NCBI GenBank assembly: GCA_035578155.1
Contig: JAPWDM010000014.1
Span: 14,999,501 to 15,063,500, forward strand
Length of the DNA: 64,000 bases
Source of the DNA: Brachynemurus nebulosus
Taxonomy: Eukaryota > Arthropoda > Insecta > Neuroptera > Myrmeleontidae
Reading direction: 5' to 3'
A model generated the notes under the pieces. It was not told the origin of the DNA, made no database searches, and saw only the letters and a program-made list of their open reading frames with translations. Shown one piece after another: positions 1 to 62,003 of this stretch. Position 1 is the first letter of the stretch, and each line of letters opens with the position of its first letter. The translations under genes were made by a program, and so were the position numbers.

Positions 1-760
1 TGTCTTTATCTAGAATGTTGCTTTTTACTCTGAAATATACCTATATAATTTTATATACACACATCGGCATAATTAGCGGAACACAAAAAAAAAATATATA
101 AAAACCTATTTATTAAACAAAGTTGGCAGATTTATTTTCATTTTTATTTAAAATAATATTAAAGTAACGAATCAATTGACTTTCCATAGAATTGTTTTTA
201 TTTATTATTGATGCAATTCTTTTTAAGAGGTTTGGCACTTTCGAATTCAAATGCCGTTTTTTCTCAATATGGTCGAGCTTCAAACTGCTGTAATTGAAGA
301 ATGGCAAAGACTGTCCCAGGAAACTATAGAAAAACGAATAGTATAGAAAAACGAATGGAAGCTTTGATAAGAGCACGGAGGGAACTAGGCGGGATTAAAA
401 CGCTGTATTTCATTTTCTATTTGTTAAATAATCTTTAACTTAAATTATTCTTAGACGACATAAAATTCCAAAAATTTGCCATTTTATATGGTTACTTGCT
501 TTGCTACCGAAAATAAAGATATATCGACTTGTGAACATGTAATTTTAAGTGAATAATTAAATAAGATTAATATTTTCTTGAAATTAAATGGTTTGTTTGA
601 TTTTTACAGATTTTTTGTATGTTCCGCCAATTCTGCCGGTGTGTGTATCACTGGTACTGGCAGATTCAAGTCAAGATCTGAATTGTGTCTATCTTATCTT
701 TTTGCTATCTATTCGATTACGTAATACGAAATGTCGGATTCTTCAATATTTCGTATTTTA
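1..760. other. AT-rich non-coding stretch
   Basis: I see no gene here. The longest frames (87 codons on the minus strand near 113-376 and 64 codons on the plus strand near 588-782) have no recognisable motif, and their composition is what AT-rich DNA gives by chance. Confidence 0.6.
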
Positions 761-1102
761 TAATATATATTACGTGATTTAGATTGTAAGTTACATATTA
801 CATACGAGCGAAAAAGTTACGCAAGAGCCGCGCAATGACGAACGCGTAGCATGCCTAACAACCGAGTTACATACTATAATTTATCTACGATTAACATTCA
901 TTAAAACCAAGTGCCAACATTCAGTTTTTAGGTAATATAATTTAGTACAGGTTTTAATGTAACATATGATATAAAATTAATAAATGTATAACCAGCTATG
1001 TTTCTTTACATATAGGCGCGTGTAAAGTATAAAATTTAGCACAGGTATATTTAAAATATAGCTTAGCTAAATAAGCAATTTCACGGCAATCGTAGATAAA
1101 AT
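761..1102 (+). repeat. Hairpin-capped repeat, family 1, copy A
   Basis: This is one of three copies in the window (the others are 9129-9573 minus and 53631-54049 plus). The head is an imperfect inverted repeat: TATATTACGTGA near 764 is answered by a GTTACATACTATA arm near 860-880, with a CG-rich loop between. The second arm runs into TTTATCTACGATTAACATT. Its inverse, GGCAATCGTAGATAAAAT, marks the tail near 1085-1102. It has no coding potential. It is more diverged and shorter than the other two copies. The mechanism of mobility is not known from this sequence. Confidence 0.75.
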
Positions 1103-9128: not shown

Positions 9129-9573
9129 ATTTTATCTACGACTACCATGAAATTGCTTCTTTATTGTACAAAATACTATCTAAGTAAGCTACGTTTTACA
9201 CACAGCCACATATCCAGCTGTACAAAAAATGCCCCTTTACACGTATGTATGCTAAAAATAATAACGCCTACTACACTTTTATTAATTATTATAATTATTA
9301 TAATAATATGATATACAGTGATATACATGATATATATTATTATGTTAGAATTTGTAAAAAAATTTTACCTAGCAACTGATTGTTTACGTTTGTTTTTAAT
9401 AAATTTCAAATACTACATAATTTTAATGTATTGGTATTTGTAGATTTGTACCAAATTTTTATCGTTTATTGTGAATTTCATGTTAATCGTAGATAAAGTA
9501 TAGTACGTAACTTGGTTGTAAGGCATATGTGTGTAATATGCAACTTACAACCTCAATCACGTAATATACTATT
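9129..9573 (-). repeat. Hairpin-capped repeat, family 1, copy B
   Basis: Read on the minus strand it starts AATAGTATATTACGTGATTG at 9573. The second arm is about 110 bp further on: CAAGTTACGTACTATACTTT. It is followed by the inner repeat TTTATCTACGATTAACATG. The tail at 9129 (plus-strand TTTATCTACGACTACCATG) is the inverse of that inner repeat. This is the best copy for reading the true head terminus. An (ATT)n-rich run lies inside at about 9281-9312. No protein is encoded. Confidence 0.8.
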
Positions 9574-19681: not shown

Positions 19682-20357
19682 CAGGGGTTTTCAAATTTTT
19701 GCATCGAGAGGTCAAATTATAAATGCCAAAATATTTGGCGGAGTAAGAAAATATTTTAAAATAAAAAAGAACACAAAGGAAAAATAAAATTGTTTACTTA
19801 AGCTTTGTCGTTTCAATGAAGAAACAGAATCGTTTCGGTGAAAAAAAATTGAACTTGTTGCCGTCATTACTCATTACAAATACTCAGTTTTTTAATTGCT
19901 CCCGAAGCCATAACTTTGATGACAAAAACAGGAAACTTAAAACTGTTTATAGGTTTTTCGTGCTACATTTTTCATTTTTGATCAAATCCGAATTGTAAAG
20001 ATAACAAAATATCATAGGCGGAAATTAAACTATACTTCCTAAACAAATTTGGTTATCTTAACCTAAGAAGTAGATTTATGTAAAAGTAGTTCACCGAAAA
20101 AATTACCATAGAAAAGTAACTCGCAGGAAAACCAATGCTGGACACCACTAACATAGAAAATCAATGTAATAGCAAATATTAAGTTTTTTATATTCCATAT
20201 AAAAAACTTAATATTTTCCAACGGAAAATACAGCTAGATTTATAGATTCATTGCGAAAACAAAAATTTAAGTAAGTAATCTTTACGAATTTGAAATTGTA
20301 AGCGGTCTGGCATCGCGGGTCACACTTGGTTCGCAAACTATACATTGAGAACCCTTG
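19682..20357. mobile_element. hAT-like non-autonomous element, 676 bp
   Basis: The element begins CAGGGGTTTTCAA and ends in the inverse, TTGAGAACCCTTG. The 8-bp flanks CCTTAAAG (19674-19681) and CTTTAAAG (20358-20365) agree at 7 of 8. Eight-base duplications and CAGGGGTT-type ends are typical of hAT. There is no transposase frame. A perfect hairpin lies inside at 20174-20216. Confidence 0.8.
20174..20216. repeat. Perfect 19-bp hairpin
   Basis: AAATATTAAGTTTTTTATA, a 5-base loop (TTCCA), then the exact inverse TATAAAAAACTTAATATTT. It sits within the hAT-like copy. Its function, if any, is unknown. Confidence 0.85.
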
Positions 20358-20493
20358 CTTTAAAGAGTACATTGATTACAGCGTTGATGAAGATATCCGT
20401 AACAGCAGTATTTAACATATTATGTATAAAAAATAAATAAATAAATACTTGGCTAAAAGAAGAAAAGAAAAAACATGTGAAGGTACTGTAAGT

Positions 20494-20853
20494 CAGTGTT
20501 TTTCAACCTAAGGGTTGCGACCTCCTGGGGGGTCGCGAGGCCTTTTTAAGAGGGTCGCAGTTTCCTTAAAAATAAAACAACTCCAGTTCAATATATAACA
20601 TGTAATAATGAGAAGGTTAATTAATGGTTACACTATAAGTCGTCAACTGCGATTTCGACATAAAAATATGCCTATTTCAAGTCCTTAATTACGTATCTAA
20701 TCGATACCTGTAACTATGAAAATAATCAATAATGATGAACGGATTCTATATTTATCACATAAAAAAATAAAAGTAATAGCGGAGGGTAGAGGGTCGCGGA
20801 ATATTTTTCCATCCTAAGGGGGTCGCGCCATGAAAAAGGTTGGAAAACAAGTG
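20494..20853. mobile_element. hAT-like MITE with GGGTCGCG subterminal motif, 360 bp
   Basis: CAGTGTTTTTCAACCTAAGG opens the element. The closing sequence AAGGTTGGAAAACAAGTG is its approximate inverse, with one extra base. GGTCGCGAGG, GGGTCGCAG, GGGTCGCGG and GGGTCGCGCC occur near both ends. These ends resemble a widespread hAT MITE type. No 8-bp duplication could be confirmed. Confidence 0.6.
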
Positions 20854-24185: not shown

Positions 24186-24910
24186 GCTTAACCGCGTTTT
24201 TCTTGTATTTTATTAGCAGAATATAAAGAGAGTGTTTAAAATAAAAATGGTAAAGGTGTTTTATTGGGTATGTAAACCTACCTCGAAGCTGGGTTGTTTA
24301 TTGAACTTAATGCCTTTATAAATCTTAACCAGACTAATAAAAATATAAATTATAGTTCCTTGTTTCAGTAGAGATTCGTTCTGATATGGTGGTAAGCAAC
24401 TTCTACACTTGTCCGGTAGATCGTGAGTTCAAAATTAATCAGGCGAATTATATCATCATCAATATTTTCATTTTCCCATCAACAACTCATTATCGGTAGT
24501 GTTATGCATGTAATTTGAAACAATAACAAAATCCTTTCAACATAAAATAGCCATATATTATATTAATATCTTCCCAATGGCAGGATTAAATACTCATGAC
24601 AAAATATTCACAACACAAATGAACATGAAACATAATATCCGTGGCAAAAACAATCAAAAGCTAGTAAAGTTAATCACTTAAGTCATCTATATGATTAGCG
24701 TTTTTGACATTCTTCTTTGCTCGAATTTTCTATTATAGTGATGATGTTTGTCATAGGTATTTAATCCTGTATCTAACCGTTATCTGAAACTTTATTATCT
24801 GATATTTTTCATCTATTTGTGACCCAAGTATAAGGAAGGTAGTAGCAAAATAATAAAAATATTGAAAATTTTTGTCAGGCTCCTAGAGTCAAATTAATTA
24901 AGTCAGAAAG
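24186..24910. other. Non-coding stretch
   Basis: I see no gene and no repeat ends that I can define. Confidence 0.45.
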
Positions 24911-25382
24911 GTATGTTATACACCAAATGATTAAAGTGTGATTTACAATCCTGTGTATGAAGTTTGTTATCAGAGGACATGTAAGGGCCAACTATTCCCA
25001 CATAAGATTGAAAGAAACACTTTAGATTCGTGGCGTAGCGCAATTCCGGATAATTCAGAATTATAAAAATTAGGAAAGAAATTTTTAATGTTGTTTAAAT
25101 TGTATGGAATAATATTACACCAAGTATACTTTGGATAAATTAACCAAATTGGAAAATACATCCTTATCTTTATCTATAAGTTGTAATTTGTTTATTTTAA
25201 ATTAGTAATTCACTACCTAATAACGCTATTTAACTTAAATTTCGTTTGCTGATTGGTGACGCCTTATGAAATTTTCTTGCATGCTGATCGGCTTAAAAGC
25301 GAGAGCAAAAGTATTTTCAGTTTTTTACTCCTTATTAAGAAGGACTGGAGTACGTATTTTAGCTCCGGAATTTAAGAAAAAT
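24911..25382 (+). repeat. Hairpin-capped repeat, family 6, copy A
   Basis: The head GTATGTTATACACCAAATGA and the phrases GTGAAGTTTGTTnnCAGAGG and CTGTAAnGGCC match the copies at 59072 and 59837, allowing for decay (here TATGAAGTTTGTTATCAGAG and CATGTAAGGGCC). The inner repeat GCAATTCCGG occurs near 25049. Its diverged inverse, CTCCGGAATTTAAG, marks the tail near 25363-25376. This is the oldest-looking of three copies. It is non-coding. Confidence 0.7.
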
Positions 25383-25485: not shown

Positions 25486-25602
25486 AATAGCTTATTTCTC
25501 ACGAATATGAGTTTGTTGCGCGAGCCCGCAGGGCGACTACAACAATTAATATGAGTGAGAAATAAGCTTTTCCCACGTATTTTATACTATACTTTTTCTA
25601 CG
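25486..25602. repeat. Hairpin cap, family 7
   Basis: AATAGCTTATTTCTCACGAA...GTTTGTTG is answered by CAACAATTAATATGAGTGAG and AAATAAGC, with a GC-rich centre, GCGAGCCCGCAGGGCGAC. The second arm runs into TATACTATACTTTTTCTACGA, closely like the inner repeat of family 1. The far end of this element is not identified. A GTAGAAAAAATTG near 25873 is a weak candidate. Confidence 0.65.
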
Positions 25603-27246
25603 AACCAATTTTTTTTTCGTAAAATTTACATTAATATTTATTTAAATAATAATTAGTAAAAATTTTTTAAATTAATAATAGTCACTGGTCATACATATGT
25701 ATATTTTTTTATATATTATCATAGTATTATATATTAAATTCACGGAACAGCCTACTTTTTTTTATATCAAGCCGTGGCAAATTATTCCGCACGCTCTTTT
25801 CCGCACTGTGTGGGCAATTGTTAATTTTTACATATAGTTAGCCGTGCACAAAATGTTCCTTTTAATAGCAGGAGTAGAAAAAATTGTTTTAAGCTTTTTT
25901 TTTCATACGGAAAAAAGGCCTACATTTTGTGCCTTCTTTTTATTCAAACCGCCGCCATTTCTTCAAATTTCAAAAAAAAGAAAAAACCTCCATAGGAACA
26001 TATAGCGGCTTACTCGCACATTGATAATCTATTTGATTTTTTTTTCGGTTGGAAACTGCGGCCGCAATTGTGGGCACCAATAGCCTCGTTTTTTTAAAGC
26101 CACTTTTTTCAAAAAATTATAATTATAAAAAATAAATAAAAATGAACAAAAAAATATTTTTGTATTGTTAAATAGTGTTATTAATCGTAACAATACAATT
26201 TATCCCCATTCCCCCATCCTATCCATCCGAAAAAAAATTCAAAAATTTACTAATTTTCGGCCGGTCACACTGTAATGGTACCTTAAGAAACATTAATTGT
26301 AAACACTTTCTTAAAGCTTTGGTATTGCATATCGTGTTGTCTCGGGAAAATTTCTTTAACGAATTTCCTTAATAATTTTTACATAATGTTTGTTTGAATT
26401 TACTTAAAAATTTAAAAAGACCATCATATATTGAATCACAAGTGCTTAGCTATGTTGTTTACTTTTCATTTCCTATCTATCATTTCCGGACTAAAAGTAA
26501 GAAATATTTCCATTTTTATTCCTTTTTTATTCAATTATTGCCTTTCATTTATCTGCGTGAAAAACAACTGTTGTTGAATATTGTATAATAAATATATAAA
26601 TTTTTATTATTTTCATATATTCAACCCTATTATGATGACTGACAAGTATAATAAAATTCATACTAAGAAAAATCACAAAATTTTTATAGCCAATGTGATG
26701 TAATATTGTCAACTTTTGAGTGGCATTAATGTAAATTCTACGTGAAAAGTGTTTTACTGTTGTGAGATTTTTTGTCGTATTATTATATAATATAAAATTT
26801 ACATATTTTTTTTATGAAAAAATGTAAACAGTTTTTTTTATTATATTATGTTGGTACGTCTTCAGTTTTATGACGTTGTGCTAAATGGAAATACAAATTT
26901 TAATGTATGGATATAGGTATAACTTTTTATGCATTGAAAAATATTTTGATTATATAACTAGCTACTTTTTTAAATAAGACACCAAGTGATTATATTGAAA
27001 GTATCCAACGATTTTATTAATCTTATCCTTGAGTGTTTATCTTGAAGTCCATTGTCAAATTTATACTCAGTATTTTATAAATAAGCTTTTAGCAAATTTA
27101 CAGAAGGAAAATTCAAATATTATAGCCGTTGGCATGATGAGACTTGGAGGCCTGGGATTGTCACAGCGTTTTATTTTGACGTATCCAGAACCCGGGAACC
27201 ATATTCACTAAAATTTATACATGCAGGATGTTTCAAGCAATTAAGA
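25603..27246. other. Non-coding stretch
   Basis: No gene is supported. A short inverted pair occurs near 25848 (GCACAAAATG) and 25923 (CATTTTGTGC). Frames of 60-65 codons have no recognisable domain. Confidence 0.45.
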
Positions 27247-27681
27247 AATAGTATATTGTGCAATAAGTGCGGGAAATTGTCGATTGCCCACGAAAGCGAA
27301 GTTCATTCGCATGAGTGAGCAATCGACAATCCCGCACGAGTTGCAAATACTATTTTTTATTACGAATTTCACATACTTTTTCTATTGTTATTACTATTTT
27401 TGACATTTTTATTACTTTTAAAATAATATTTTTGAGTGTTCGTCTTTTTTTTCTGAATTAGTTATTGTTTAAATTACTTGGTGGTTTCTATAGAAATAAT
27501 TATCAAATATTTATTAAATGAAAAACCAAGAGGTGGCTTTGCGTGTTTTGATTAAATTTTGCGTGTTTTATTGCCAATTTGCGTGCGGAAAGTAAACTTT
27601 CCGCACGCAAAAAAGTATGTGGGAAGAGTACAGTGGGCAAACAGCTATTTTGCGTACAGAAATGTGTGCGGTAATAAAAAT
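27247..27681 (+). repeat. Hairpin-capped repeat, family 2, copy A
   Basis: It starts AATAGTATATTGTGCAATAA. The head folds on itself: AGTGCGGGAAATTGTCGATT pairs with AATCGACAATCCCGCACGAG, and the outer AATAGTAT pairs with ATACTATT. The second arm continues TTTTTTATTACGAATTTCA. The tail carries GTAATAAAAAT. A further internal palindrome, GTGCGGAAAGT/ACTTTCCGCAC, lies at about 27583-27610. This copy has lost about 25 bp before the tail compared with the copies at 47418 and 54054. It is non-coding. Confidence 0.85.
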
Positions 27682-28410
27682 ATCAATTATAACACGGAAA
27701 AATTTGTTATGATGAAAAAGTGTTTCATTTCATTATTATTAGATATTTTTAGTAAAAACCTAAATTATATTGCGTGAAAATATTGTTTAAAAGTAATTAA
27801 AAGCCAATAACAGTAAGTTGACTAAAATAATTATAAATAAACCTTATGCGCTGGCTTCGCTTAGATGTCTGTTTTGTTTTCATTTTGGTATTTTATATAA
27901 TTTCCTGTAGCAGAGTACATTTATATATTGTAGAACTTTGGGCTGCGGTTTCACCTATGCGTAAAATTATCAGAATTTTAGGTCCAAGTTATTTATAGTG
28001 ACTGGTTTCGCTCGTCAAACAACTCGTAAGTAGAGATGTCGTCCGGGGTAATTTTTTGTTCCGTTCCCAGCTTCCTCAAAATTAATTTCTCATTCCCACG
28101 CGCTCCCAATACTGAAAAAAATTATAAATTCCAATTAAGTCCCCCCGCCACTAAAATAAAAAAAAATGGTACATTCAACTTTGACTTCTGAAATCACTGA
28201 AGGCAAGAATGCTACAGTGTACTTTTATAAAGATCTAACAATTTTTGACTGATTGTGAGATGTAGTTTCTGGGAAAAAAGGAAAATATTTTTATTCGCGT
28301 TTCTTTAACTTTTTGAGAAGTATAGGAATTACTATAAACCATCTGCCATCTGAAACAATTTATCTATACTATATGCTACCATAAATTCTCTCCCAATTGG
28401 ATATCTTTTA
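27682..28410. other. Non-coding stretch
   Basis: I see no gene. The part near 28030-28145 is C-rich on this strand and unlike its surroundings, but has no defined ends. Confidence 0.4.
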
Positions 28411-28857
28411 GGTCCGATTTACATTAACGCTCCGCTCTCGGTACACTCCCGCTCCACTCTCGCTCCGACCTAATCTTGTGTTCATATTACAGTGCTGATA
28501 TCATGGTGGTACCTATTCGTTCTCTGTTCACATTATAATGCCCCTCTGGGTACGGTCGCAGTTCGGTCTCTGTTCGATACAAATATCTTTTCATAGCAAC
28601 TGAATGCAAGTGGAGTGAAGTGGAATTAAAAGAGTATTTACACTATAGGTACAAGTCATAACAAGTCTGATATCGCTCCGATAAAATATTACCCGAGTGG
28701 TATTGATATTGGAGTGGCATTGAAGCGGGAGCAAACCGTGACTGATATCGGACCGATATCAGTGAATACACTCATTGTTTATTGTGTAAAAATATTTCAT
28801 CGAATCGGGAGCGTAGTGATATCGTACCGAGAGCGGAGCGTTAATGTAAATTGGGCG
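28411..28857. mobile_element. MITE with TTA target duplications, 447 bp (copy A)
   Basis: GGTCCGATTTACATTAACGC opens the element, and GCGTTAATGTAAATTGGGCG closes it. The inverted repeat continues through CTCCGCTCTCGGTAC, for about 33 bp. TTA flanks both sides (28408-28410 and 28858-28860). A second copy is at 61544-62003 with TAA duplications. TWA duplications favour PIF/Harbinger. The interior has several short palindromic CTGATATC/GATATCAG and CGGACCGATATC motifs. No transposase is encoded. Confidence 0.85.
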
Positions 28858-35919: not shown

Positions 35920-37392
35920 CAAGGAGATGCACCCAGAGTGAAATTCGGGATTTTAATGAAACACCGTTGCTGTGTAGAATAGGCAAAAATAAGGGACCCG
36001 TGTTTTTTTTATCGACCATCTTCTACGTTTAAGGGGTGAAACCAGCGCCTAAAGTTGGGGGTTCAAATCGTATTTCTTAAGATATCTCGAAAGCTATAAG
36101 AGATAAAGGAAAACTTTAAATTGATTAAATGTTACACTTTGAAAGACCTATTCACCTGTATAGGTTAAACCAGGGCCGTATTCATAAGAGGGGCTGGAGG
36201 GGTGAAAATGGGGGTAAATTTTCTTCTACAGCCTGAATGGTTCAATGTGTCAACTTTTTGCCATCATAAATATAAAAAGCACCAAAAATTAGGGGACACG
36301 TGTTTTTGCGTTTTTTCGAATTTTGTGTGGTATTCAAGCCATATAAGAAAGAAAAAATAATTTACATTATATTGCATTATTATTGATTGCAAATACGTTG
36401 TATATTTTTCTATTTTTATGTTTATTACATCCATGAAAATGTAAATTTTTATTTTCCGATAATGATTCATGTATTCTTCAGTATTTACTTAATTGGTAAT
36501 TTAGCCATGCGTATATTTGGTTACTCGTATTCGATATTTTTTATACCTATTTCTACCAAAGTTCTCTGGTCTGCAAGTGTTAATGAATGTTCAAGAAGAA
36601 GCAATAATCTTCCGTTCAACAACTGCCTTTATCTTCTTACAAATTCGTTTTTAACCAAATAAACGCGATTTATTTGTTTCTCAACATTCAAACTATTTTT
36701 CTTATTCTTTTTGTATGTTTTATAGGTGCCAACCCCATTCCCCAAATCGCAACATTTATTACAAACACCTGAACAGTAGTGAGCGACAGAAATTATTGCT
36801 TCTTCTCGAGCATTCATTAACACAAGCACACTAGAAACCTCTAACTTTGGCAGAAATAGGTATAATAAATCGAATATGAGTAACCAAATGTACACATGGA
36901 TAAATTACCACATAAGTTAGTACTGAAAAATATATGAATCGTTATCGGAAAGTAAAAATTTACATTTTCATGATGAAAATCAACATGAAAATAAAAAAAT
37001 ATAGAACGTATTTGCAATGAATAATAATGCAATATAATCTACTCCATTATTTTCCTCCTTACCACTAGAACCACTCAGGCTGTACCAGAAAATTTACCCC
37101 CATTTTCACCCCTCCAGCCCCTCTTATGCACATGGCCCTGGTTTAACCTATACAGGTGAATAGATCTTTCAAGGAGTAACATTTCGTCGATTTAAAGTTT
37201 TCCGCTATTTCTTATAGTTTTCGAGATATCTTAAGAAATACGATTTGAACCCCCAGATTTAGGGGCTGGTTTCACTCCGAAAACGTGGAAGATGGCCGAT
37301 AAAAAAAAATCCGAGTCCCTTATTTTTGCCTATTCTACACACCAGGGAAGTTTCATCAAAATTCTGAATTTCACTTTGGGTGCATCTCCTTG
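35920..37392. mobile_element. 1.47-kb foldback element (near-complete palindrome)
   Basis: CAAGGAGATGCACCCAGAGT at 35920 is mirrored by ACTTTGGGTGCATCTCCTTG ending at 37392. Inverted similarity continues inward almost to the centre near 36656. About 320 bp of close match (AAAATGGGGGTAAATTTTCT against AGAAAATTTACCCCCATTTT) is followed by a more diverged segment (GTGTTAATGAATGTTCAAGA near 36578 against TCGAGCATTCATTAACAC near 36808). The two arms are each about 700 bp. A target duplication is not clear. It is non-coding. Pairs of 60-90 codon frames inside are the two arms read in opposite directions. Confidence 0.9.
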
Positions 37393-39750: not shown

Positions 39751-40386
39751 AGCTAGTGTTTCACCTAACATTTAGATTTTATAAAATTATAATCTTTTGT
39801 TAAAATTATAATTTTATGGTAAAATGATTTTTTATGAGGTGTTTCAATTAAAATCTAGATTTTATAAGCCGAGTATGCCGACTATAATCGATCGAAGAAA
39901 CGACTATTTAATTCTAAGGAAAAAAAATGGCGCCAAATGTCAGTTTACAAAAAAACAACATTTATTGCATACTACTAGTACATTTATTTGAAAAAATAAA
40001 AAGGCAGTTTTTAAAAAATATTCATGGTCGTTGTACAATTTAACATGGTACTAAATTTAATATTAAAATTTATTTTTTCATCAGTAATGTTAGTAATTTT
40101 CATCAATAATGTTATGTAGTAAATTTTTTCATCAATAGTGTTCATTAATAATAGAACTAGATCTACATTTGCTACATATCTGTCACTTCTGCACATGAAT
40201 TTTTTTAGTTTTCGCCATTTTGATTTGTAGGTGAGGGTTAATTATACTTGAAAAATTCTTATAATATCTAGATTTTAGAAAATCTAGATTTTAAATATAT
40301 TACACCTACGATTACACTAAAATTTAAGCCACGCCCCCGTAAAATTATATATTTATAAAATCTAGGTGTTAGGTGGAACACTAGCT
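39751..40386. mobile_element. MITE with TTA target duplications, 636 bp
   Basis: AGCTAGTGTTTCACCTAACA and the inverse TGTTAGGTGGAACACTAGCT continue inward through TTAGATTTTATAAA. TTA flanks both sides (39748-39750 and 40387-40389). TWA duplications again point to PIF/Harbinger. Internal copies of AAAATCTAGATTTTA give further palindromes. A 61-codon minus frame inside is not a transposase. Confidence 0.8.
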
Positions 40387-40440
40387 TTAGTCAGCATCGA
40401 TTTACCTCTTCAGTAATTTTATCTATCAAATTTCTATAAC

Positions 40441-40880
40441 AAAGTAACAAGGTTACAGCAGTTTTACATCAAAAGTAGTAAGGTTACAGCGAGTCTGTAT
40501 CAAAAGTAGTAAGGTTACAGCGAGTCTGTATCAGAAGTAGTAAGGTTACAGTGAGTCTGTATCAAAAGTAGTAAGGTTACAGCAATTCTGTATCAAATGT
40601 AGTAAGGTTACAGCGACACTGTATCAAAAGTAGTAAGGTTACAACAATTCTGTATCAAAAGTAGTAAGGTTACAGCGAGTCTGTATCAAAAGTAGTAAGG
40701 TTACAGCGATACTGTATCAAAAGTAGTAAGGTTACAACGATTCTGTATCAAAAGTAGTAAAGTTACAGCAATTCTGTATCAAAAGTAGTAAGGTTACAGC
40801 GATTCTGTATCGAAAGTAGTAAGGTTACAGCGATTCTGAATCAAAAGTAGTAGGATTATAGTGACTTTCTACCAAAATGT
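40441..40880. repeat. 31-bp minisatellite, about 14 units
   Basis: The unit is close to AGTAGTAAGGTTACAGCGAT followed by TCTGTATCAAA, with a period of exactly 31 (for example, GTAG at 40506 and 40537). Units differ mainly at the GCGAG/GCGAT/ACAAT segment. The first and last units are more degraded (AAGTAACAAGG, TAGGATTATAG), as expected for arrays that recombine internally. Confidence 0.95.
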
Positions 40881-40883
40881 TTG

Positions 40884-41492
40884 TACCGAAGTGAAATAAA
40901 AATCACTTTTCAATATACGTTTTTTCATTATAGTTGTAATTTTATTATATAAAAAACGAGAGCAGCCCTGCATTTTGTTCAGAGGGTATACTTTCAACTA
41001 AAGTTTTGCATATAAGAATTTTGTATTTGCCGAAAACATATTATGTCGGTAACTTTCTTGGACAACCGTAATCCCATAAGAAACTACCATTTGTTTAAAA
41101 TTGTCAAATGGCTTCCATGGAGGTCATCCTTTCTCTCTGTATTATTGTACGAAATTTGTTTCAAGGCTCCGCGCGCTCATTTTGCACCGGGCCCCACTTT
41201 TGTTCGAACTGCCTCTGACTGTAGTTCTCATCAAATACATTTTCTCGTTTTCTTAAAACATTAAAAAAAAGCAAGAAAAAAATTGAACCAGCTATTCTCA
41301 CGTGATGATTACCAATTTTTTTGATGTTTACAAAAGAGCAAATTATTTGCCGCCGTATACATATTATATTATTGTATTGTGTACGGCGTTACGGATTCAT
41401 ATCACCTAATAGTTTCTATGAACATCTGTTTCACGAACACTTTAATAGGGTGTACACAGTGGTGGTGGCAGACGAAGTCGACCAAACGTATA
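40884..41492. other. Non-coding stretch
   Basis: I see no gene. A G+C-richer patch near 41160-41225 (CCGCGCGCTC, CACCGGGCCCC) has no partner. Confidence 0.45.
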
Positions 41493-42628
41493 CCGTAGAC
41501 AGGGATGAATAGGCACGAATTCAGACTTCACACCGTGTTTTTGTATTTATTTTATGAGGGCCTAATCTCTACTATGTTAAAACTTTACGTGAGGATGGTC
41601 ACTTGATCACGGTATCCTAAAATATCGGTGGTTTTTTAAGAATAACAAAAATCATTTCCTCTCTATGATAAATAGGGGTCAAAAGAGACGATAAAGGGGT
41701 GAATGGGAACAATCCGTAGAACCAACCAAAATTGAAAATCAAATATAGTTTCGAATTTTTTTGTATCTGTACATCCAAAAAAGGAAAAAATATTTTATGA
41801 ATTCCTGTAGAAATAAACGTAAAATTCAATGGTTATAAAATATAGAAATGTTATGTTGAATGTCTTTATAAAAATATCGAATGACTTGATGACCTTGAAA
41901 ATGCTCTGTTCTATGTTTCAATAGATTCTTCATCCGTCCCTAATCACCCCACATTCGTCTCTTTATACTTGATAAAATGTTCTTATTAACCTATAATACT
42001 GTTCCTATTCACATTTTTTCCGTCCCTAATATTAACCTCAATTTAGCCCTAAGTCAAGTGTCAAATCCTCATTATTTCCTCTTAAAAAAATTTAAAAAAA
42101 GTCTCTTTTTCTCAGATATGTTTCAAAATAACTAAAATTTCATTAGACAACAATTTACTGATAAAAGCACCAAAATAAATAGTTTTTAGATAAAGTTTTA
42201 AGAACCAAAAAACAGTACTGTTTGAAGACGACAATCTAAACTGATTTTTTAATATTTTTTGCCCAACTTCAAGCTTAATCACTATTGTTACCCAAAAGAA
42301 TAATGTTTATACTATAATTTAAGTAAGATATATATTCGCATTTACGTCTAATATTTTTAAACTAAGTTAATGAATAACATTTTTTTTAAATAATTAATAC
42401 TAGACAGGTTTATTTTGTGAAAATCCATATTAAAACTGTCTAGTATTAATTATTTGAAAAAAGAACAATTTTTAGTTATGTTTTTTACCTGAGGATGGTG
42501 TAAAAGCCGAAAGTCGACTCGTGTTTTTCTATGATTTTGCTGTGAAAAGTGACAAAGCAACGATCCCATGTTTTAACATTTTTTTTGTCCCTATTTACTC
42601 GCCTGTCCCGATTCACTCGCGTCTACGG
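41493..42628. mobile_element. TA-flanked element with internal repeats, 1136 bp
   Basis: CCGTAGAC at 41493 is mirrored by GTCTACGG ending at 42628, each next to TA. The flanking subterminal zones hold GGGATGAATAGG, GGGGTGAATGGGAAC, GTCCCTATTTACTCG and GTCCCGATTCACTCG, that is, several variants of one motif in both orientations. No frame survives. The perfect end match is only 8 bp, so the superfamily is open. Confidence 0.5.
42388..42455. repeat. 24-bp hairpin
   Basis: AAATAATTAATACTAGACAG is followed 20 bases later by CTGTCTAGTATTAATTATTT. It is nested in the preceding element and may be a small insertion of its own. Confidence 0.8.
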
Positions 42629-47417: not shown

Positions 47418-47927
47418 AATAGTATATTGTGCAATAACTGCGGGAAATTGTCGATTTTCCACGAAAGCGAAGTTGATATGATGATTTGCACGCACTCACG
47501 AACGTAGTGAGTGCGCTCATTCGCTCGAGTGGGGCAATCGACAATCCCGCACGAGTTGCACATACTATTTTTTATTAGGAATTTCATATACTTTTTTCTG
47601 TTATTGTCACTATTTTTGACATTTTTATTACTTTTTAAAATAATATTTTTAAGTACTCGTCTTGTTTTCCTGAATTAATTATGGTTTAAATTACCTTGTT
47701 GGTGGTTTCTATTGAAATAATTATGAAATATTTATTAAATGAAAAATTAAGAGGCGGCTTTGCGTGTTTTGATTAAATTTTGCATGTTTTATTGTCAATT
47801 TGCGTGTAGAAAGTTACTTTCCACACGCAAAAAAGTATGCGGGAAAAGTACAGTGGGCAAACAGCTATTTTGCGTACCGAAATGTGTACGCCAAATTAGT
47901 ACTTCTCCCGCATGAGTAATAAAAAAT
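47418..47927 (+). repeat. Hairpin-capped repeat, family 2, copy B
   Basis: It starts AATAGTATATTGTGCAATAA, as do the copies at 27247 and 54054. The head arms GCGGGAAATTGTCGATT and AATCGACAATCCCGC are separated here by a longer loop with a second hairpin (GCACTCACGAACGTAGTGAG, then GCGCTC). The tail is CTCCCGCATGAGTAATAAAA. This is the most complete copy of the family. It is non-coding. Confidence 0.88.
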
Positions 47928-53630: not shown

Positions 53631-54049
53631 TAGTATATTACGTGACTGAGATTGTAAGTTGCAAATTACACACGAGCCTAAAAGTTAGGCAAGACCCGCA
53701 CAGCGGCGAGTGTGTAATATACCTTACATCAGAGTTACGTACTATACTTTATCTACGACTAGCATGAAATTCACAATAAATGATAAAAATTTGATACAAA
53801 TACAATACATTAAAATTATGTAGAATTTGAAAATTAAAAACAAATGTAAACATTCAGTAAATTGCTAGGTAAAATTTTTGTACAGATTCTATTATAATAT
53901 ACAGTATAACAATTAGTAAAAGTGTAGTAATCTCTGGTATTTTACATATCAATGCGGGCAAAGAGCCATTTTTTGTACAGCTGTATGTAAAAACATAACT
54001 TAACTAGATAGTATTTTGTAAAATAAACAAGCAATTTCATGGTAGTCGA
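53631..54049 (+). repeat. Hairpin-capped repeat, family 1, copy C
   Basis: The head TAGTATATTACGTGACTGAG folds with CAGAGTTACGTACTATACTT. The loop carries ACACGAGCCTAAAAGTTAGG and CGGCGAGTGTGT. The inner repeat TTTATCTACGACTAGCATGA is answered at the tail by AATTTCATGGTAGTCG, after which the next repeat begins almost at once. It is non-coding. Confidence 0.82.
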
Positions 54050-54053
54050 AGGT

Positions 54054-54546
54054 AATAGTATATTGTGCAATAAGTGCGGTAAATTATCGATGGCCCACGA
54101 AAGCGAAGTTGAGTGAGTACGAACGTAGTGAGTGCGCTCATTCGCTTGAGTGCACGAGTGCATCCCGCACGAGTTGCAGCTACTATTTTTTATTACGAAT
54201 TTGACATACTTTTTTCTATTATTATTACTATTTTTGACATTTATAATATTTTTTAAAATAATATTTTTAAGTGTTCGTCTTTTTTTTTCTAAATTAGTTA
54301 TTGTTTAAATTACTTTGTTGGTGGTTTCTATAGAAATAATTATGAAATATTTATTAAATGAAAAATAAAGAGGCGGCTTTGCGTGTTTTGATTAAATTTT
54401 GCGTGTTTTATTGTCAATTTGTGTGTGGAAAGTTACTTTCCGTACGCAAAAAATTTGTGGGAAGAGTACAGTGGGCCAACAGCTATTTTGCGTACAGAAA
54501 TGAGTGCGCCAAGCTAGTACTTCTCCTGCATGAGTAATAAAAAATA
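54054..54546 (+). repeat. Hairpin-capped repeat, family 2, copy C
   Basis: AATAGTATATTGTGCAATAA starts the copy four bases after the tail of family 1 copy C, in the same orientation. The head arms are partly decayed (GGTAAATTATCGATGGCC). GTACGAACGTAGTGAGTGCG is kept in the loop. The tail is CTCCTGCATGAGTAATAAAA. It is non-coding. Confidence 0.85.
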
Positions 54547-55187
54547 TTTTATGTAAGGCATTTGAACGTTTATAAACTTATTTTAATTTTTGAAATGAAA
54601 ATTTCTATAGCAAAGGTACTTCTCCGTGAAAGTGTACAGAAATCTGTAATATGAAAGTGTAATGAAACCCGTAATGTCTTTGGCTGTAATGAAATCTGTA
54701 ATGGTTGTATAGTGAAACAAACGCTAGTGGCTAGTGATTAATATTTTATATTGTTAACGTTGTTTAATTTATCTACAGTATTCTTGATGTCATTCTTTTT
54801 TGTAATATTTTTAAACGTATATTATGTACAATTCGGTTTTCCTTAATAATAACAAAAATTAATAAACATTTTATATTCTAAGAGCATTCTTAAGATTAAA
54901 TTAATATTTTTATTCACCCCGAATATAGTGAAATAAAACATAAATGTTGGGGACATTAATCTTCACAAAGTTTTGAGTGCAGCACATTTTTCGTTTCGGA
55001 GATATAACTAGTCAAATCTGTTACTTAACCTACCCAATAAATATATACTAAATCCGAGAAATGTTAGACTGAAGGGGCTGAAAGGAGGGTTGTAACTATA
55101 GTAGACAGAAAACTCTCATTTATAATGCACCACAGATATCGTGATGGTTAATTCCTATGAAAAAGTTGTTCCACAAAAATTGTTGTA
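54547..55187. other. Non-coding stretch
   Basis: I see no gene. TGTAATGAAATC-type phrases repeat briefly near 54640-54700. Confidence 0.45.
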
Positions 55188-55974
55188 CACGGAGAGAAAA
55201 TTCCTAAAAAATTACTGTGCTCAGCACTACAATCGACGTGTAAAAGGCGAACATATTAAATTCTGTAAGGTAAAAATATAAAGATTATAATTAATCATAA
55301 AAAATTTAAAGTATGGCATGTTCTTTTCGTAATATTATCTCCGTAAAATTTGTAAAACAGCACAGTAAAAAGTTCCATTACCGACAAAAAAATAATTTTT
55401 AATTGTGTTTATTAAAAAAAATTACCATGCTAACATGCTAATAATAGAAAGAAAAAAAAACAGAAAGAAGGTTGGTTTTGTTGGGAACGCTGTAATGAAA
55501 TGTACCTAAATCAGCGAGTTACATGGGTTACATGCGAACCATAGGTGTGGACTGTGGGAGAAACTTTGTCAGACAGCTCCCACCAAGCACCTTGATGCAG
55601 CTAGTAGTCAGTTGCTTTTACACTCTCTTAGGATGATGTCATCGTTTAATTCATCTTTTTGTTATTTACCTATCTTTAGTATATGTATTACAATATATTG
55701 TTGGCAATCATTTTTGTATACATGTTTTTACAGGTACAGTGCAACCAATATAAGGTCGCGAGTCAGATGCGCAAATGAAAGAGTACGACAACAAGAATTA
55801 AACTATAATATACATGCATAAGAGTGTGATAAAAGTTGTGTTAGCACCACATTAAATTTTACCATGCTAGCACATATTTTTTATTTTGGTCGTCGATCGC
55901 GCACGGATTATAGGGGAGCATAGTAATTTTTCTGAAATTTTCTCTACAAAAATTATAGGATTTTTCTCTCCGTG
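55188..55974. mobile_element. TA-flanked element with CACGGAGAGAAAA ends, 787 bp
   Basis: CACGGAGAGAAAATTCCTAA and the inverse AGGATTTTTCTCTCCGTG, flanked by TA (55186-55187, 55975-55976), continue inward with AAAAATTACT / AGTAATTTTT. The end sequence parallels CACTAAGAAAAAA of the element at 44873-45905. There is no transposase. Confidence 0.75.
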
Positions 55975-55976
55975 TA

Positions 55977-56620
55977 TTTTGGGTGAAAATATATTATACT
56001 CAGCAATTGTTCAAATAATCTCCACGTCTACTTATGGTGAGAAAGGGATGTATGAGGGAGATACTGCGATAACCTACCGTAGACGTCCGGGCAATCAACC
56101 CCAATAAAAGTTAGATTCCCCTTAAATGGTCACACCTCCAGCACCTTACACATACTTAGACACAAATGTGTCTATATTTAATATAGCGTGGGTTGATCAA
56201 GCGACAGGTTGTGGCTCGTCATATTCTCTAAATAAAAAGTACTTTGTGAGAATTTTCAATAGGTCGTCTAAATGGGCGGAATTTTGGGTCACTCTTTATT
56301 AATCTGCAAGTTATTATCCTCTTATTAAATGTCCCTTTTTTATCCTTCCGTTTCCCTTATGCAATACCTACGTGTTTTACATGTACCAAATTCTATAATG
56401 TAAAACTATATGTACACGTATATAATGATATTATGCTTTTTCATATTGACTAGAATGGCTGCGTGGTACCTACCTATAATATGTAGCTACGTTAGTTACG
56501 TCGAGTTCGAGCACAAAGAAGTACATACATTTTACGATAATTGAGTTGAGGTACTGCAAGTTTAGATATGAAATGCAGTTATTATTTCATACACTACTCT
56601 AGAGCCTACTAAGTACTATA
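55977..56620. other. Non-coding stretch
   Basis: I see no gene. ACCGTAGACGTCCGGGCAAT near 56075 resembles the end of the element at 41493, but no mate was found. Confidence 0.4.
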
Positions 56621-56904
56621 TACAGCCTTGGCCAAAAGTGTTAAGCACCCCCATAAAACACGTGTAATTTATAAATTAGTTTAAAAATGACTTATCTGCT
56701 TAATAATAGAATGAAAGGCAATACTAAAAGTTAATTTTAAACAATAGATAAAGGATTTTACGGTATCATAAAACACCTGCTCCACAAAACGTGAAATATG
56801 AAGTTTTTTGAGAAATAATGTAATTTATTTGTTAGTCTTTTACTAACTTTTGGGATAATAAGAAGCTGCTGAGTGTTGTTTATTTGTGTAGTAGAGACTC
56901 AGTC

Positions 56905-57330
56905 AAATTTAACTCACCTCAAAATTAGATTCATCAAATTATACCACATTGGACCATCTTCAGAAGAATGCTGGTGTCTTAGCGCCCATTCTACACGATT
57001 CTTCTTGTTATTGTCGGAGAGCCAAGGCTTCTTCCTGGCTTTGCGGCTTTTTAAGTCTGCTTCTGTGAGTCTTCCTTTTACAGTTCGGAAACTAATTAGT
57101 TTCCCAATCTCCTCCGATAAAACTGCAGTGAGCTCAGAAGAAGTTTTCTTCCGGTCCTTAAGTGAGTCACGGATAAGTTTTCTAACGTGGCGGTCAGTAG
57201 TAATGCTTTTTCTGCCCGTTCTCATTTTATTTGTGTGAGAGCCAGTCTCCGCGAACCTTTCAATGGTAGATTGCACTGCATCTCGTCAAACTTTTACTAA
57301 TTTAGCAATCTTTACTTGAATCTTCCCTTC
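56905..57330 (-). pseudogene. Truncated Tc1-type transposase
   Basis: On the minus strand, the frame from 57276 gives 120 residues. It contains the second helix-turn-helix region of Tc1 transposases (TGRKSITTDRHVRKLIRDSL, residues about 20-39) and the linker KARKKPWLSDNNKKNRVEWA. The similarity extends upstream of the ATG, through KIQVKIAKLVKV, then a TGA stop, then RDAVQSTIERF, so the stop is a mutation. Near 56920-56945 the first catalytic region (FDESNFE) is still legible, but in another frame and next to a stop. Everything beyond, including the remaining catalytic acids, is absent, and the terminal inverted repeat begins instead. The Tc1 assignment is secure. The protein is not functional. 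Confidence 0.88.
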
Positions 57331-57555
57331 TACATATTACATCTGGATTTTTACCGGTATTTCTGTGTTAAGTTCTCATTGTTTCGGCATTTCGTATTAC
57401 AAACTGTCTCTACTACACAAATCAACAACACCCAGTAGCTTCTTGTTATTCCGAAAGTTAATAAAAGACTAACAAATAAATTACATTATTTTTCAAAAAA
57501 ACTTCATATTTCACGTTTTGTGGACCAGGTGTTTTATAGTACCTTAAAATCTTTT

Positions 57556-58405
57556 TTGCACGATCGTGTATTTTCATGCATTTACTGATGCTGTTAACAA
57601 TGCTGGTAAGTTACATTTCCCGAACGTTTGCTTATATCCATGGAAACCAAAAAATAACAGTGCGGTAAGTGAAATAGATGCGTGGTAAGTTAATAGGAGT
57701 GTGGTAAGTGAAATTAGCTCAAAAATGATTGTAATTATTTATTTATATTGAAATTAAAAGTACAATTTGAACAATTAGGAAAATAAATCGATTAATATGA
57801 AAATTTTCACTAGTTTGCACATTATTATTATTATTATTATTGGCATTAATCTTCTTATTTTATTGACATTTCAAAAGGTCGTTCTATCATTAAAATTTTC
57901 TGTGGTTTTCATAATCTTCCCTTCATTTTACGAGAATAAATTTGCAGCCAAAATTAAAATTCTTCGTCAATTTCATTATTCTCACTAATATTATAGTTTA
58001 ACAATTTTTTCCCATTTTTTTTAATAGAAAATTCAAAAAAATATTTACACCAATTAAATATTGACACTTAATTTTTTATTTACAAATATAGTTGTCAATT
58101 GTCACTACAAAGATTCGTATAGTTGTTAATATAAAAATTTATAATATTTATTCATGGCATTCTATGTCATAATATAGAAATATAAATTTCACCTATATTA
58201 TCTGAATTTTATTTTTTATTTACTATATTTTTATTCTTTAATTATTTTAAATCGATCGTGCAAAAAATATTACACAATACACGATGCGTTAATTGCCTTT
58301 ACTGATCTCGAAAATTACAAAAACTCGACCCCGCGGGGCTCGTTTTCGCAACATTTTCTCGATCAGTAAAAGCAACTTACCGAACTTATATTGTAAAATA
58401 CTATT
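57556..58405 (-). mobile_element. Hairpin-capped repeat, family 8, nested in the Tc1 end
   Basis: Read on the minus strand, it begins AATAGTATTTTACAATATAA exactly at 58405. It folds through a head of about 145 bp (AGTTGCTTTTACTGATCGAG against GAGATCAGTAAAGGCAATTA, with GAGCCCCGCGGGGTCGAG in the middle) and continues TTTTTTGCACGATCGATTT. The tail ends CACGATCGTGCAA at 57556. The boundaries come from comparing the two Tc1 inverted repeats. The interrupted side joins AAAATCTTTT to ATCTTTTG, which matches the unbroken arm (inverse of 56744-56756) without extra bases. The AAAAGAT repeat on both sides already exists in the intact arm, so no target duplication is needed. It is non-coding. Confidence 0.85.
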
Positions 58406-58534
58406 ATCTTTTGTTTAAAATTGACTTTTAGTATTGCCTTTCATTCTGCTGTTAAGCAGATAAGTCATTTTTAAATTAATTAATGAGTTACGCGTGTTTT
58501 ATGGGAGTGCTTAACACTTTTGGCCAAGGCTGTA

Positions 58535-59071
58535 TATGTATATAATGTACTTACTATAGTACAGCATGTAGTACTATCACAGTGTTGTGTATCGTAAGTA
58601 CCTATATAATTCTGTATTATAAAAGTGAGGATAATACAGTACCGTTGACGGAAGAGCGGACACTACTGATTCAGTTTTATAGAATGTTATTAGTAAAAGT
58701 TTTTGTATTTTTGTACGTGTGTTGTTGGTGAAAATATGTAAAAAAGTGGTTTGTGCCTATTCCCTATGAGCATAGGTTGTAGTAAAATTTCCACAGTAAG
58801 CGATGTCAGCTATTTGTGACGTATATATCTACCAGTTGCATTTCGTGACCTAAAATTTGACTGGGGCTAACAAAAATCTGGTTAACACCGGTTAAAAAAT
58901 TTAATAAGCAATAAAAATTGCGTAGTTTTTAAATTTACAAATGTATTGGTTGTCAAAACAGCCTATCAGTTAGTGATTCAGATTATTTTCTTAAATAAAT
59001 ACTTCATAAGAAGGATACAAGTATTGTTAAGTTTAATATAAATTTAGATATGTTAAGTTTAATATAAATTT
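58535..59071. other. Non-coding stretch
   Basis: I see no gene or repeat ends. Confidence 0.45.
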
Positions 59072-59836
59072 AATAGTGTGTTATACCAAGGGACTAAAAT
59101 GTGATTTTTAATCCCGAGTGTGAAGTTTGTTGCCAGAGGGCCTGTAAAGGCCGGAGGATAAGAATTTACACGAGAGATAAAAAAACACTTTGGTCCTGTG
59201 ACGTATATATTTTTTTTTGCAATTCCGGACAATTTAAAATTAACGTAAAAGCCCCCATTACGGAACACTATTTTTAGGTGTGTCATTAAAGTGGTTTATA
59301 AAAACTAATAAATAAATTAAACACCCATTTTTTTTCTTAATTAGCATGAAACCAAGTTTTTTTAATCCAATGAATACGTTTTTAAGAAAATATAATCCAA
59401 AAATTGCGATTTATTAATATTTTTGTTTTATAATTTGTTGGCATCTATAAAAAAAACGGACAGAATATATTAACACCTTTAATAAATCAGCACGGACACC
59501 TAAAAAAGAACACGTATGTAACGTACATGAGATACATCACATACATCTTCTGCCATCTTTTCACGTATAGTCAACTACATATAGTTCACTTTGATATGTA
59601 TAAATTTTAAAAATTGTCGCGATTTTGACAAATTAGTTTTAGAATTGAAATAAAATAAAATAACCACTGTCGTTTTTTTACAAAATACATAGATGGCGAA
59701 ACAATATTTGTGAAAAATACAGTATTCTCATCGTTTATTTCATCGAATATTTAAACCATTCTGTGTTTCCTACTTTGACATTCTATGTATTACTAGATGT
59801 CACTCTATGACATGTATTTTAGTCCCGGAGTTGAAA
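59072..59836 (+). repeat. Hairpin-capped repeat, family 6, copy B
   Basis: The head AATAGTGTGTTATACCAAGG and the loop CCAGAGGGCCTGTAAAGGCC match copy C. TTTTTTTTTGCAATTCCGGA near 59210 is answered at the tail by AGTCCCGGAGTTGAAA. An unrelated segment occupies 59244-59515. It starts ACGTAAAAGCCCCC, as in the palindrome at 2144, and has inverted TTTTTAGGTGTGTC / GGACACCTAAAAAA ends, so it is probably a nested insertion. It is non-coding. Confidence 0.75.
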
Positions 59837-60344
59837 AATAGTATGTTATACACCAAGGGACTAAAGTGTGAGTTTTAATCCTGAGTGTGAAGTTTATTTC
59901 CAGAGGGCCTGTAAAGGCCCGAGGCTACAAATCACACGAGGAATAAAAAAGAGGCACTTCAGTCCTTTTTTTTGGAATTTCAAATAATTTAAAATTATAA
60001 AAATTAAAAAAATTACTTAAATGTCATTCAAATTGTATATAATAAAATTCCATCTAATATACTTTGGATAAATCAATCGAATTGTACAATACAATATACA
60101 TAACTGTTTGTCTTTGTCTAGAAGTTTGAATTTGTCTACTATTTTCAATTACCTAACAACGCTATTTAATTTAAGTTTTTCTGTAAATTATACGTGCTGA
60201 TTGGTTTAAAAGCGGGAGCAAAATAATTTTTGAGTCCCTTTGGACTAAAAGTGAATCTTTTAGTCCCTTGGGACTAAACATGACACTTTACTTCCTATTA
60301 TGAGGGACTAAATCATGTCTTTTAGTTCCGGAATTGCAAAAATA
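59837..60344 (+). repeat. Hairpin-capped repeat, family 6, copy C
   Basis: AATAGTATGTTATACACCAA begins immediately after the tail of copy B, head to tail. Head arms AAGGGACTAAAGTGTGAG and GGCACTTCAGTCCTTTTTTT flank GGGCCTGTAAAGGCCCGAGG. The tail is AGTTCCGGAATTGCAAAAAT. Several copies of GGGACTAAA lie within the last 110 bases. It is non-coding. Confidence 0.82.
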
Positions 60345-61227: not shown

Positions 61228-61543
61228 TATTTTTGTCGGAGTTTACACAGAAGTTATATTTATTAAGTTTTATTATAATTGAAATGTTTACGTAATTATA
61301 TTATAATAATTGAGGAGAAAAAACCCGACTTTATTCTTTTTGACAATTTTTTCTTTTTGTTTGTTTAAGATTTTTAAAAAAAAATACTTAATTCTCTTTA
61401 AAAGGAAAAAAGTCAATTATTTTTAAATTAAAATTTAGTTTACATGGAAGGCCAGGAATTGCCGGAAAAAACTGAAAGTATAATCAAAAAGGAAAGTATG
61501 ATAAATTTTAAATTTGCGAATATCGAGACGACATAAGAATTAA
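61228..61543. other. Non-coding stretch
   Basis: I see nothing definable here. Confidence 0.45.
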
Positions 61544-62003
61544 GGCCCGATTTACATTAACGCTCCGCTCTCGGTACGATATCACTAAGCTCCCGATTCG
61601 ATATAATCTTGTTGTGTTCACATTACAGTGCTGATATCATGCTGGTACTTATTCGTTCTTTATTGACATTATAATGCCGCTCTGGGTACGCTCGCAGTTC
61701 GGTCACAGTTCGATACAAATATCTTTTCATAACAACTGAATGTAAGCGGAGTGGAGTGGAATCAAAAAACTGTTTACACTATAGGTACAAGCCATAGCAA
61801 GTCTGATATCGCTCCGATAAAATATTACATGAGTGGTATTGATATTGGAGTGGCATTGGAGCAAGAGCGAACCGTGACTGATATCGGACCGATATCAGAG
61901 CGATGATGTGAATACACTTATTGTTTATTGTGTAAGAATATTTTATCTAACCTGGAGCGGAGTGATATCGTACCGAGAGCGGAGTGTTAATGTAAATCAG
62001 GAC
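61544..62003. mobile_element. MITE with TAA target duplications, 460 bp (copy B)
   Basis: This is the second copy of the family at 28411-28857. The ends are GGCCCGATTTACATTAACGC and GTGTTAATGTAAATCAGGAC, with TAA on each side (61541-61543 and 62004-62006). It matches copy A through TATTGATATTGGAGTGGCAT, GACTGATATCGGACCGATAT and ATCGTACCGAGAGCGGAG. Small indels separate the copies. Finding two copies at different TWA sites confirms the boundaries. Confidence 0.88.

What the first reader, a model, noticed from the sequence alone, without database searches (positions are those of the whole stretch)
53631..60344. Five repeat families share a hairpin-cap architecture and the AATAGTAT start
Families 1 (761, 9129, 53631), 2 (27247, 47418, 54054), 6 (24911, 59072, 59837), 8 (57556) and probably 7 (25486) have little sequence in common, yet are built alike. 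Four begin AATAGTATnTT. A 100-150 bp hairpin with a GC-rich centre follows. Its second arm (often ending ACTATnnTTT) runs into a T-rich inner repeat ending in ACG or CGG (TTTTTATTACGAA, CTTTATCTACGA, TTTTTGCACGATC, TTTTGCAATTCCGG). The inverse of that inner repeat is the far end (TAATAAAAA, TCGTAGATAAAA, GATCGTGCAA, CCGGAATTGCAAAAA). So the hairpin lies outside one of two inverted repeats. Conservation of structure over sequence suggests several non-autonomous lineages mobilised by related machinery that reads the cap. Asymmetric inverted ends with subterminal hairpins recall Helentron-associated elements, which is the best known alternative.
Basis: partly seen in the sequence, partly recalled or inferred. 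Interest (0 to 1): 0.8.

Follow-up and report, generated by a model that had tools for sequence, protein, structure and literature searches.

The report
Helentron-like elements with long hairpin ends

Summary
Read with the hairpin last: 5'-T(2-6)-inverted repeat ... inverted repeat-hairpin-ACTATT-3'. One empty site is visible: family 8 lies in one arm of a Tc1-like inverted repeat; the other arm shows insertion in a TTT tract without duplication, with ends at the T-run and at ATACTATT. Two head-to-tail junctions (F2|F1, F6|F6) agree. One F6 copy keeps both ends around an unmatched interior. Some families share distant 3'-end sequence (F2-F8, F1_9129-F8), so 'little in common' is too strong. 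Departures: the inner repeat lies 76-149 nt from the 3' end, most of it hairpin (papers seen: 20-60 bp, stems of 5-10 bp); no significant 5' hairpin in 7 of 7 copies tested. Weak spots: 4 of 11 hairpins and several repeats are not strong singly. No partner could be sought: the genome search did not complete (11 tries). Verdict: non-autonomous Helentron-type elements, a long-hairpin variant.

The parts
760..1101 (-). F1 copy (decayed, 3' end degraded); inner repeat 880-890, outer repeat 1090-1100
9130..9573 (+). F1 copy; 5' TTTTATCTACGA, 24-nt inverted repeat (22 of 24), inner repeat ends 76 nt from the 3' end, ends ATACTATT
53631..54055 (-). F1 copy; its (diverged) 5' end abuts the 3' end of the F2 copy at 54054, sharing TT
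27247..27680 (-). F2 copy; hairpin z -9.9; lacks the 43-nt hairpin tip of F2_47418; 5' end TTTTTATTAC
47418..47926 (-). F2 copy; hairpin z -8.5
54054..54544 (-). F2 copy; 13-nt exact inverted repeat; hairpin z -2.3
24905..25381 (-). F6 copy with degraded 3' end
59072..59838 (-). F6 copy: F6 ends around about 570 bp that match no other element here; its 5' end abuts the F6 copy at 59837, sharing TT
59837..60342 (-). F6 copy; hairpin z -4.1
25486..25883 (-). F7 copy; ends GCTATT; inner repeat 25592-25602, outer TTTTTTCTAC (far end weakly supported)
57552..58405 (+). F8 copy; 15-nt exact inverted repeats 57552-57566 / 58253-58267, palindromic stretch 58268-58400, ends ATACTATT; (ATT)7 and a 19-bp tandem in the interior
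56618..58537 (.). Tc1-like element with arms of about 280 bp; right arm split by F8, left arm serves as the empty site

Best explanation
These are non-autonomous Helentron (Helitron2-type) elements, i.e. HINEs, with an elongated 3' hairpin. Inferred mechanism: a Rep-helicase made by an autonomous Helentron elsewhere in the genome nicks at the element's 5' T-run, peels off one strand while replication follows, ends at the 3' hairpin/ACTATT end, and joins the strand into a TT of a T-tract, with no target duplication. The 5' inverted repeat can pair with the inner 3' repeat and so mark the end of the transferred strand (a role proposed for Helitron2 in PMC3627910). Shown here: layout, boundaries, target and lack of duplication (one empty site), exchangeable interior (one copy), head-to-tail neighbours. 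Inferred: the enzyme, rolling-circle transfer and the role of the hairpin.
For: Layout as described in PMC3627910 and PMC4067079 (passages). Empty site in the other Tc1 arm: AAAATCCTTTATC against AAAATC[element]ATC, no duplication; flanks of 11 copies were tried, 1 gave an independent empty site. 11 of 11 copies begin in a T-run of 2-6, number varying, as reported for HINEs. No flanking direct repeat over 3 nt in 11 of 11 copies at the boundaries chosen; the 3-nt one (F8, ATC) is already twice in the empty site. F2|F1 and F6|F6 junctions at the termini. F6_59072 matches F6_59837 over its first 27 nt and in two pieces (32 and 108 nt) of its last 170 nt, not between. 3'-end similarity of F8 with F2 and F1_9129. 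F8 carries an (ATT)7 microsatellite and a short 19-bp tandem, as many HINEs do.
Against: No autonomous partner seen. Of the 8 ORFs of 120 aa or more in the window all 8 were scanned: six gave no Pfam match above its cut-off, one is Tc1-like, one piggyBac; shorter or broken Rep-helicase remnants were not sought. The 3' hairpin is far longer than in the published elements seen. A 5' hairpin, listed as a Helitron2 feature, was not significant in 7 of 7 copies tested (F8 nearest, 9% of shuffles as good). Only one empty site. F7's far end rests on 9 nt (p 0.054; local 0.28) and F6 repeats are degraded within each copy. F1_53631's 3' end is not closer to F8 than controls in one direction (14 of 193).
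Confidence: 0.86

Rival explanations
1. Non-autonomous DDE (cut-and-paste) elements, i.e. MITEs whose outer end grew a hairpin.
For: Short inverted repeats are present at both sides.
Against: The two outermost ends differ (T-run against AATAGTAT read inward), the repeats are asymmetric, and the one empty site shows no target duplication.
Confidence: 0.06
2. A separate hairpin-ended class moved by another single-strand (HUH) nuclease or a tyrosine recombinase that recognises the long hairpin, only resembling Helentrons.
For: Long hairpin that contains or nearly reaches the 3' terminus; no significant 5' hairpin.
Against: Inverted-repeat position, T-run, TT target and no duplication all match Helentrons.
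Confidence: 0.06
3. Chance palindromes in AT-rich repeats with no common origin.
For: Some single features are weak: hairpins of F1_761, F6_24911 and F6_59072 not significant; F7 and F6 repeats weak. A blind scan (T-start inverted repeat plus hairpin) gives at 11 nt 10 hits in 6 distinct places against 0.75 hits on average in 20 shuffles, but only two of the six places are elements of this list (F1_9129, F8), one is a mixed F6 pair and three lie elsewhere.
Against: AATAGTAT excess, copies in register with ends at the same places, and the empty site for F8.
Confidence: 0.02

Closest known systems
HINE / DINE-1 (Helentron-associated interspersed elements; Thomas et al. 2014, PMC4067079: passages and one section read)
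   Same: Subterminal inverted repeats (11-15 bp) at the 5' end and just inside a 3' palindrome; T-run boundaries with varying T number; TT target; no target modification; no coding capacity; some carry microsatellites or tandem repeats (F8 here).
   Different: In the mite HINEs the inner repeat lies 38-60 bp from the 3' end with a 5-10 bp palindrome; here it lies 76-149 nt away and hairpin fills most of that space. No significant 5' inverted repeat/hairpin here.
Helitron2 (Bao and Jurka 2013, PMC3627910: passages read)
   Same: Asymmetric terminal inverted repeats of 8-15 bp with the 3' hairpin outside the inner one; begins with T; insertion at T-rich sites, in the exact-ended copies without duplication.
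   Different: Inner repeat about 20-30 bp from the 3' end there; a 5' hairpin is a listed feature there, not significant here.
Canonical Helitron1 (as given in passages of PMC3627910 and PMC5148889)
   Same: 3' hairpin, no target duplication, presumed rolling circle.
   Different: 5'-TC, CTRR-3' and A|T target are absent here; inverted repeats present here.

Membership tests
Helentron/HINE | Subterminal inverted repeats, 5' one at the terminus, 3' one just inside the terminal hairpin | tested here: met
   Strong in F8 (15 nt exact), F1 (22 of 24, 19 of 22 nt), F2 (13 and 11 nt); weaker in F6 (9 nt in one copy, 11 of 13 in another; the core CCGGAATTGC is outer in one copy and inner in the two others) and F7 (9 nt, p 0.054)
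Helentron/HINE | 3' palindrome | tested here: met
   7 of 11 copies z -4 or below, each family represented; much longer than published
Helentron/HINE | TT target, no target site modification | tested here: met
   One empty site (F8); no flanking direct repeat over 3 nt in 11 of 11 copies
Helentron/HINE | T-run at the boundary, number varying | tested here: met
   T2-T6 at the 5' end in 11 of 11 copies; in two of them the first TT is shared with the neighbour's end
Helentron/HINE | Autonomous partner with Rep-helicase(-endonuclease) and the same ends | not testable with these tools
   The genome search 'own' not answered in 11 tries; four viral contigs and one genome-contig scans with F1 or F2 words only: 0 hits
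Helitron2 | 5' hairpin involving the 5' inverted repeat | tested here: not met
   First 45 nt of 7 of 11 copies against 300 mononucleotide shuffles: share as stable F1 1.0, F2 0.76 and 0.63, F7 0.64, F6 0.22 and 0.29, F8 0.09
Canonical Helitron1 | 5'-TC and CTRR-3' termini | tested here: not met
   Copies start with a T-run and 7 of 11 end ACTATT
DDE/MITE | Symmetric terminal inverted repeats and target site duplication | tested here: not met
   Ends differ; empty site without duplication

The most novel reading that the evidence does not exclude
A Helentron lineage has replaced the short hairpin some bases before the 3' cut by a large hairpin with exchangeable, often GC-rich tip whose foot pairs with the cut site itself (AATAGT with the final ACTATT in F2; to within 3 nt of the end in F1_9129), so that end recognition rests on a big structure more than on sequence, and one partner mobilises several diverged families through it.
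Probability: 0.22. Interest if true: 0.6.

Novelty: new variant of a known kind. Interest (0 to 1): 0.4.

Why it matters
If several families in one genome keep a long terminal hairpin while interiors change and tips are lost, Helentron end recognition may depend on a larger structure than the short hairpins in the papers seen. Search rules built on those short hairpins could miss such elements.

Tried and rejected
Candidate sixth family at 20168-20847 (minus strand; hairpin 20174-20216, GCTATT end, 9-nt repeat TTTTCCAAC): rejected, because its far repeat lies in what looks to me like the end of a hAT-type MITE (impression from the sequence, recalled, not searched). Palindromes 2149-2284 and 42381-42462: strong folds, no such layout seen. 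AATAGTATnTT at 4615 and 43066: no hairpin beyond shuffles. Of the other hits of the blind scan I looked only at 11535/12606 (nothing convincing); the rest were left as probable chance. The mixed F6 pair joins repeats of two neighbouring copies. Hairpins of F1, F7 and F8 were aligned for a common GC-rich tip: suggestive by eye, but no local match there reached p < 0.02. Compensatory changes were not counted: at most 3 copies per family. Rfam: only the tRNA.

Searches for relatives: four viral contigs patterns and one genome contigs pattern, from F1 and F2 only, gave nothing, as expected for insect-like DNA in microbial collections. The piggyBac protein search (332 proteins, 120 listed) placed the window only roughly: named hits include beetles, planthoppers, a mealybug, butterflies, a tick and many fish; best identity among those listed 55%.

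In print: eight searches listed no paper whose title or abstract start I recognised as describing long-hairpin Helentrons. I saw passages only of PMC3627910, PMC5148889, PMC4344730, PMC7492417, PMC3630058 and PMC6544945, and passages plus one section of PMC4067079. Repbase and supplementary files were not searchable, so I do not claim that the variant is undescribed.
Full report
Setting. The window is AT-rich (28-32% GC) animal DNA, probably arthropod (inference): it carries a tRNA-Thr, a 601-aa piggyBac transposase frame (12842-14644; PF13843, E 3.6e-71) and a Tc1-like remnant (HTH_Tnp_Tc3_2, E 2.9e-19). The species is unknown; named piggyBac relatives include beetles, planthoppers, a mealybug, butterflies, a tick and fish.

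Observation. I turned each copy so that the hairpin comes last. The 11 copies then follow one plan: a run of two to six T, an inverted repeat (F1 TTTTATCTACGA, F2 TTTTTTATTAC, F6 TTTTTGCAATTCCGG, F7 TTTTTTCTAC, F8 TTTTTTGCACGATCG), an AT-rich interior of about 0.2-0.7 kb, the inverse of the repeat (mostly followed by a short A-run), a hairpin, and the 3' end. By the end reads ATACTATT in 6 of 11 copies (F1_9129, the three F2, F6_59837, F8), CACTATT in F6_59072, GCTATT in F7; F1_53631 stops at ATACTA, and F1_761 and F6_24911 are degraded. Within-copy repeat statistics are strong for F8, F1 and F2_54054, fair for F2_47418, weak for F7 and F6; in F6 the core CCGGAATTGC is exact on the outer side of one copy and on the inner side of the two others. 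Hairpin statistics: 7 of 11 have z of -4 or below; F2_54054 -2.3; F6_24911 -1.0, F6_59072 -0.9 and F1_761 +0.7 are not significant. In the F2 folds the last base is paired; in F1_9129 pairing stops 3 nt before the end; in F6, F7 and F8 the main stem stops earlier.

AATAGTAT. The word occurs 14 times against 7.0 expected, 0 of 100 shuffles reaching 14; 6 are element ends and 2 the opposite foot of F2 hairpins, so the excess is due to the elements. With up to one mismatch AATAGTATnTT is only mildly enriched (41 against 28.4, 3 of 100 shuffles).

Boundaries and target. F8 lies inside the right arm of a Tc1-like element with arms of about 280 bp. Joining the flanks of F8 and searching the window gives a match to the untouched left arm of 89% over 243 columns across the joint: empty ...AAAATCCTTTATC..., filled ...AAAATC[TTTTTTGCACG...ATACTATT]ATC.... 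So the element sits in the T-tract without duplication, and its ends are those inferred from the layout. The ATC on both sides is already twice in the empty site. Flanks of the other 10 copies gave no independent empty site (three further hits are matches of the flanks to their own place or to the neighbouring copy). The other copies show no flanking direct repeat above 2 nt. At 54054 an F2 copy's 3' end abuts an F1 copy's (diverged) 5' end, and at 59837 an F6 copy's 3' end abuts another F6 copy's 5' end, TT being shared. The simplest reading is that the T-run at the 5' end of one element served as target for the next (inference); PMC4067079 (passage) mentions distantly related Helitrons lying directly beside each other in bat and maize.

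What is conserved. F6_59072 keeps the F6 5' end (27 nt, 85%) and pieces of 32 and 108 nt (84-85%) of its last 170 nt, while about 570 bp between match no other of the 10 elements at E 0.05. F1_9129 and F2_27247 each lack 43 nt at the hairpin tip relative to a sister copy while the outer stem remains. Between families I compared the last 36 nt, anchored at the 3' end, for 9 of 11 copies (without F1_761 and F6_24911), 31 cross-family pairs, each against 193 other CTATT sites of the window (two numbers per pair: controls scoring at least as high, either way round). F8 with F1_9129 0 and 0, with F2_27247 0 and 0, with F2_54054 0 and 0, with F2_47418 0 and 2; F1_9129 with the F2 copies 4 and 0, 6 and 3, 2 and 0; F2 with F6_59837 2 and 2, 2 and 2, 4 and 2; F7 with F8 2 and 3; F1_53631 with F8 1 and 14, with F2_47418 4 and 33. 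The other 18 of 31 pairs exceeded 5 controls in both directions. A free local comparison of hairpins gave p < 0.02 (uncorrected) in 7 of 46 cross-family pairs, mostly at the same 3' ends. F1_53631 and F7 match over 51 nt at inner repeat and hairpin foot (69%, E 6e-4), but matches of that size also occur between AT-rich interiors in the same call, so this is weak. F1, F2 and F8 thus look like diverged relatives; F6 and F7 are less clear.

Comparison. Helitron2 has asymmetric terminal inverted repeats of 8-15 bp, the 3' one upstream of the 3' hairpin, and a 5' hairpin (PMC3627910, passages); HINEs have subTIRs, a 3' palindrome, T-rich target and no target modification (PMC4067079, passages and one section); oyster HINEs agree (PMC7492417, passages). 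The elements here meet these points except the 5' hairpin (7 of 11 copies tested, none significant). Microsatellite or tandem units, frequent in HINEs, are present in F8 ((ATT)7 and 2.8 copies of 19 bp) and, as short two-copy rows, in some others. The inner repeat lies about 20-30 bp (Helitron2) or 38-60 bp (mite HINE) from the 3' end there, with stems of 5-10 bp (mite) or 9 bp (Calliphora, PMC3630058, passages); here the distance is 76 (F1_9129), 119 (F1_53631), 130 and 149 (F2), 107 (F7), 138 (F8), 137 and 144 nt (F6_24911, F6_59072). That is the part that differs. I cannot say it is undescribed: Repbase was not available and only open papers were searched.

Coding capacity. Of 8 ORFs of 120 aa or more (stop to stop) six have no Pfam match above its cut-off, one is Tc1-like, one piggyBac.

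Limits. The host genome could not be searched, so copy number, consensus sequences and the autonomous partner are open. One empty site is one case. F7's far end is weakly supported.

Noticed in passing
12842-14644 (+): Uninterrupted 601-aa piggyBac-type transposase frame (PF13843), best listed relative about 55% identical.
   Followed up: partly
56618-58537: Tc1-like element with long (~280 bp) inverted arms and a frame that matches only the transposase HTH_Tnp_Tc3_2 domain.
   Followed up: partly
40348-40967: 31-bp tandem array; inverted matches at 2984-3051 and 1918-1973.
   Followed up: no
28407-28851 and 61540-61997: Two copies (86%) of a ~450-bp element with inverted ends rich in GAGCGGAGCG-type words.
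   Followed up: no
35920-37392: Large inverted repeat, arms about 600-690 bp in two matched pieces, 84-89% alike, spacer about 180 bp.
   Followed up: no
18297-19078: Direct duplication of a 404-bp unit, 1.9 copies, 95% matches.
   Followed up: no
2149-2284; 42381-42462: Strong isolated palindromes, possibly MITE-like.
   Followed up: partly
20168-20847: 20-bp-stem hairpin followed by GCTATT; layout otherwise not supported.
   Followed up: partly
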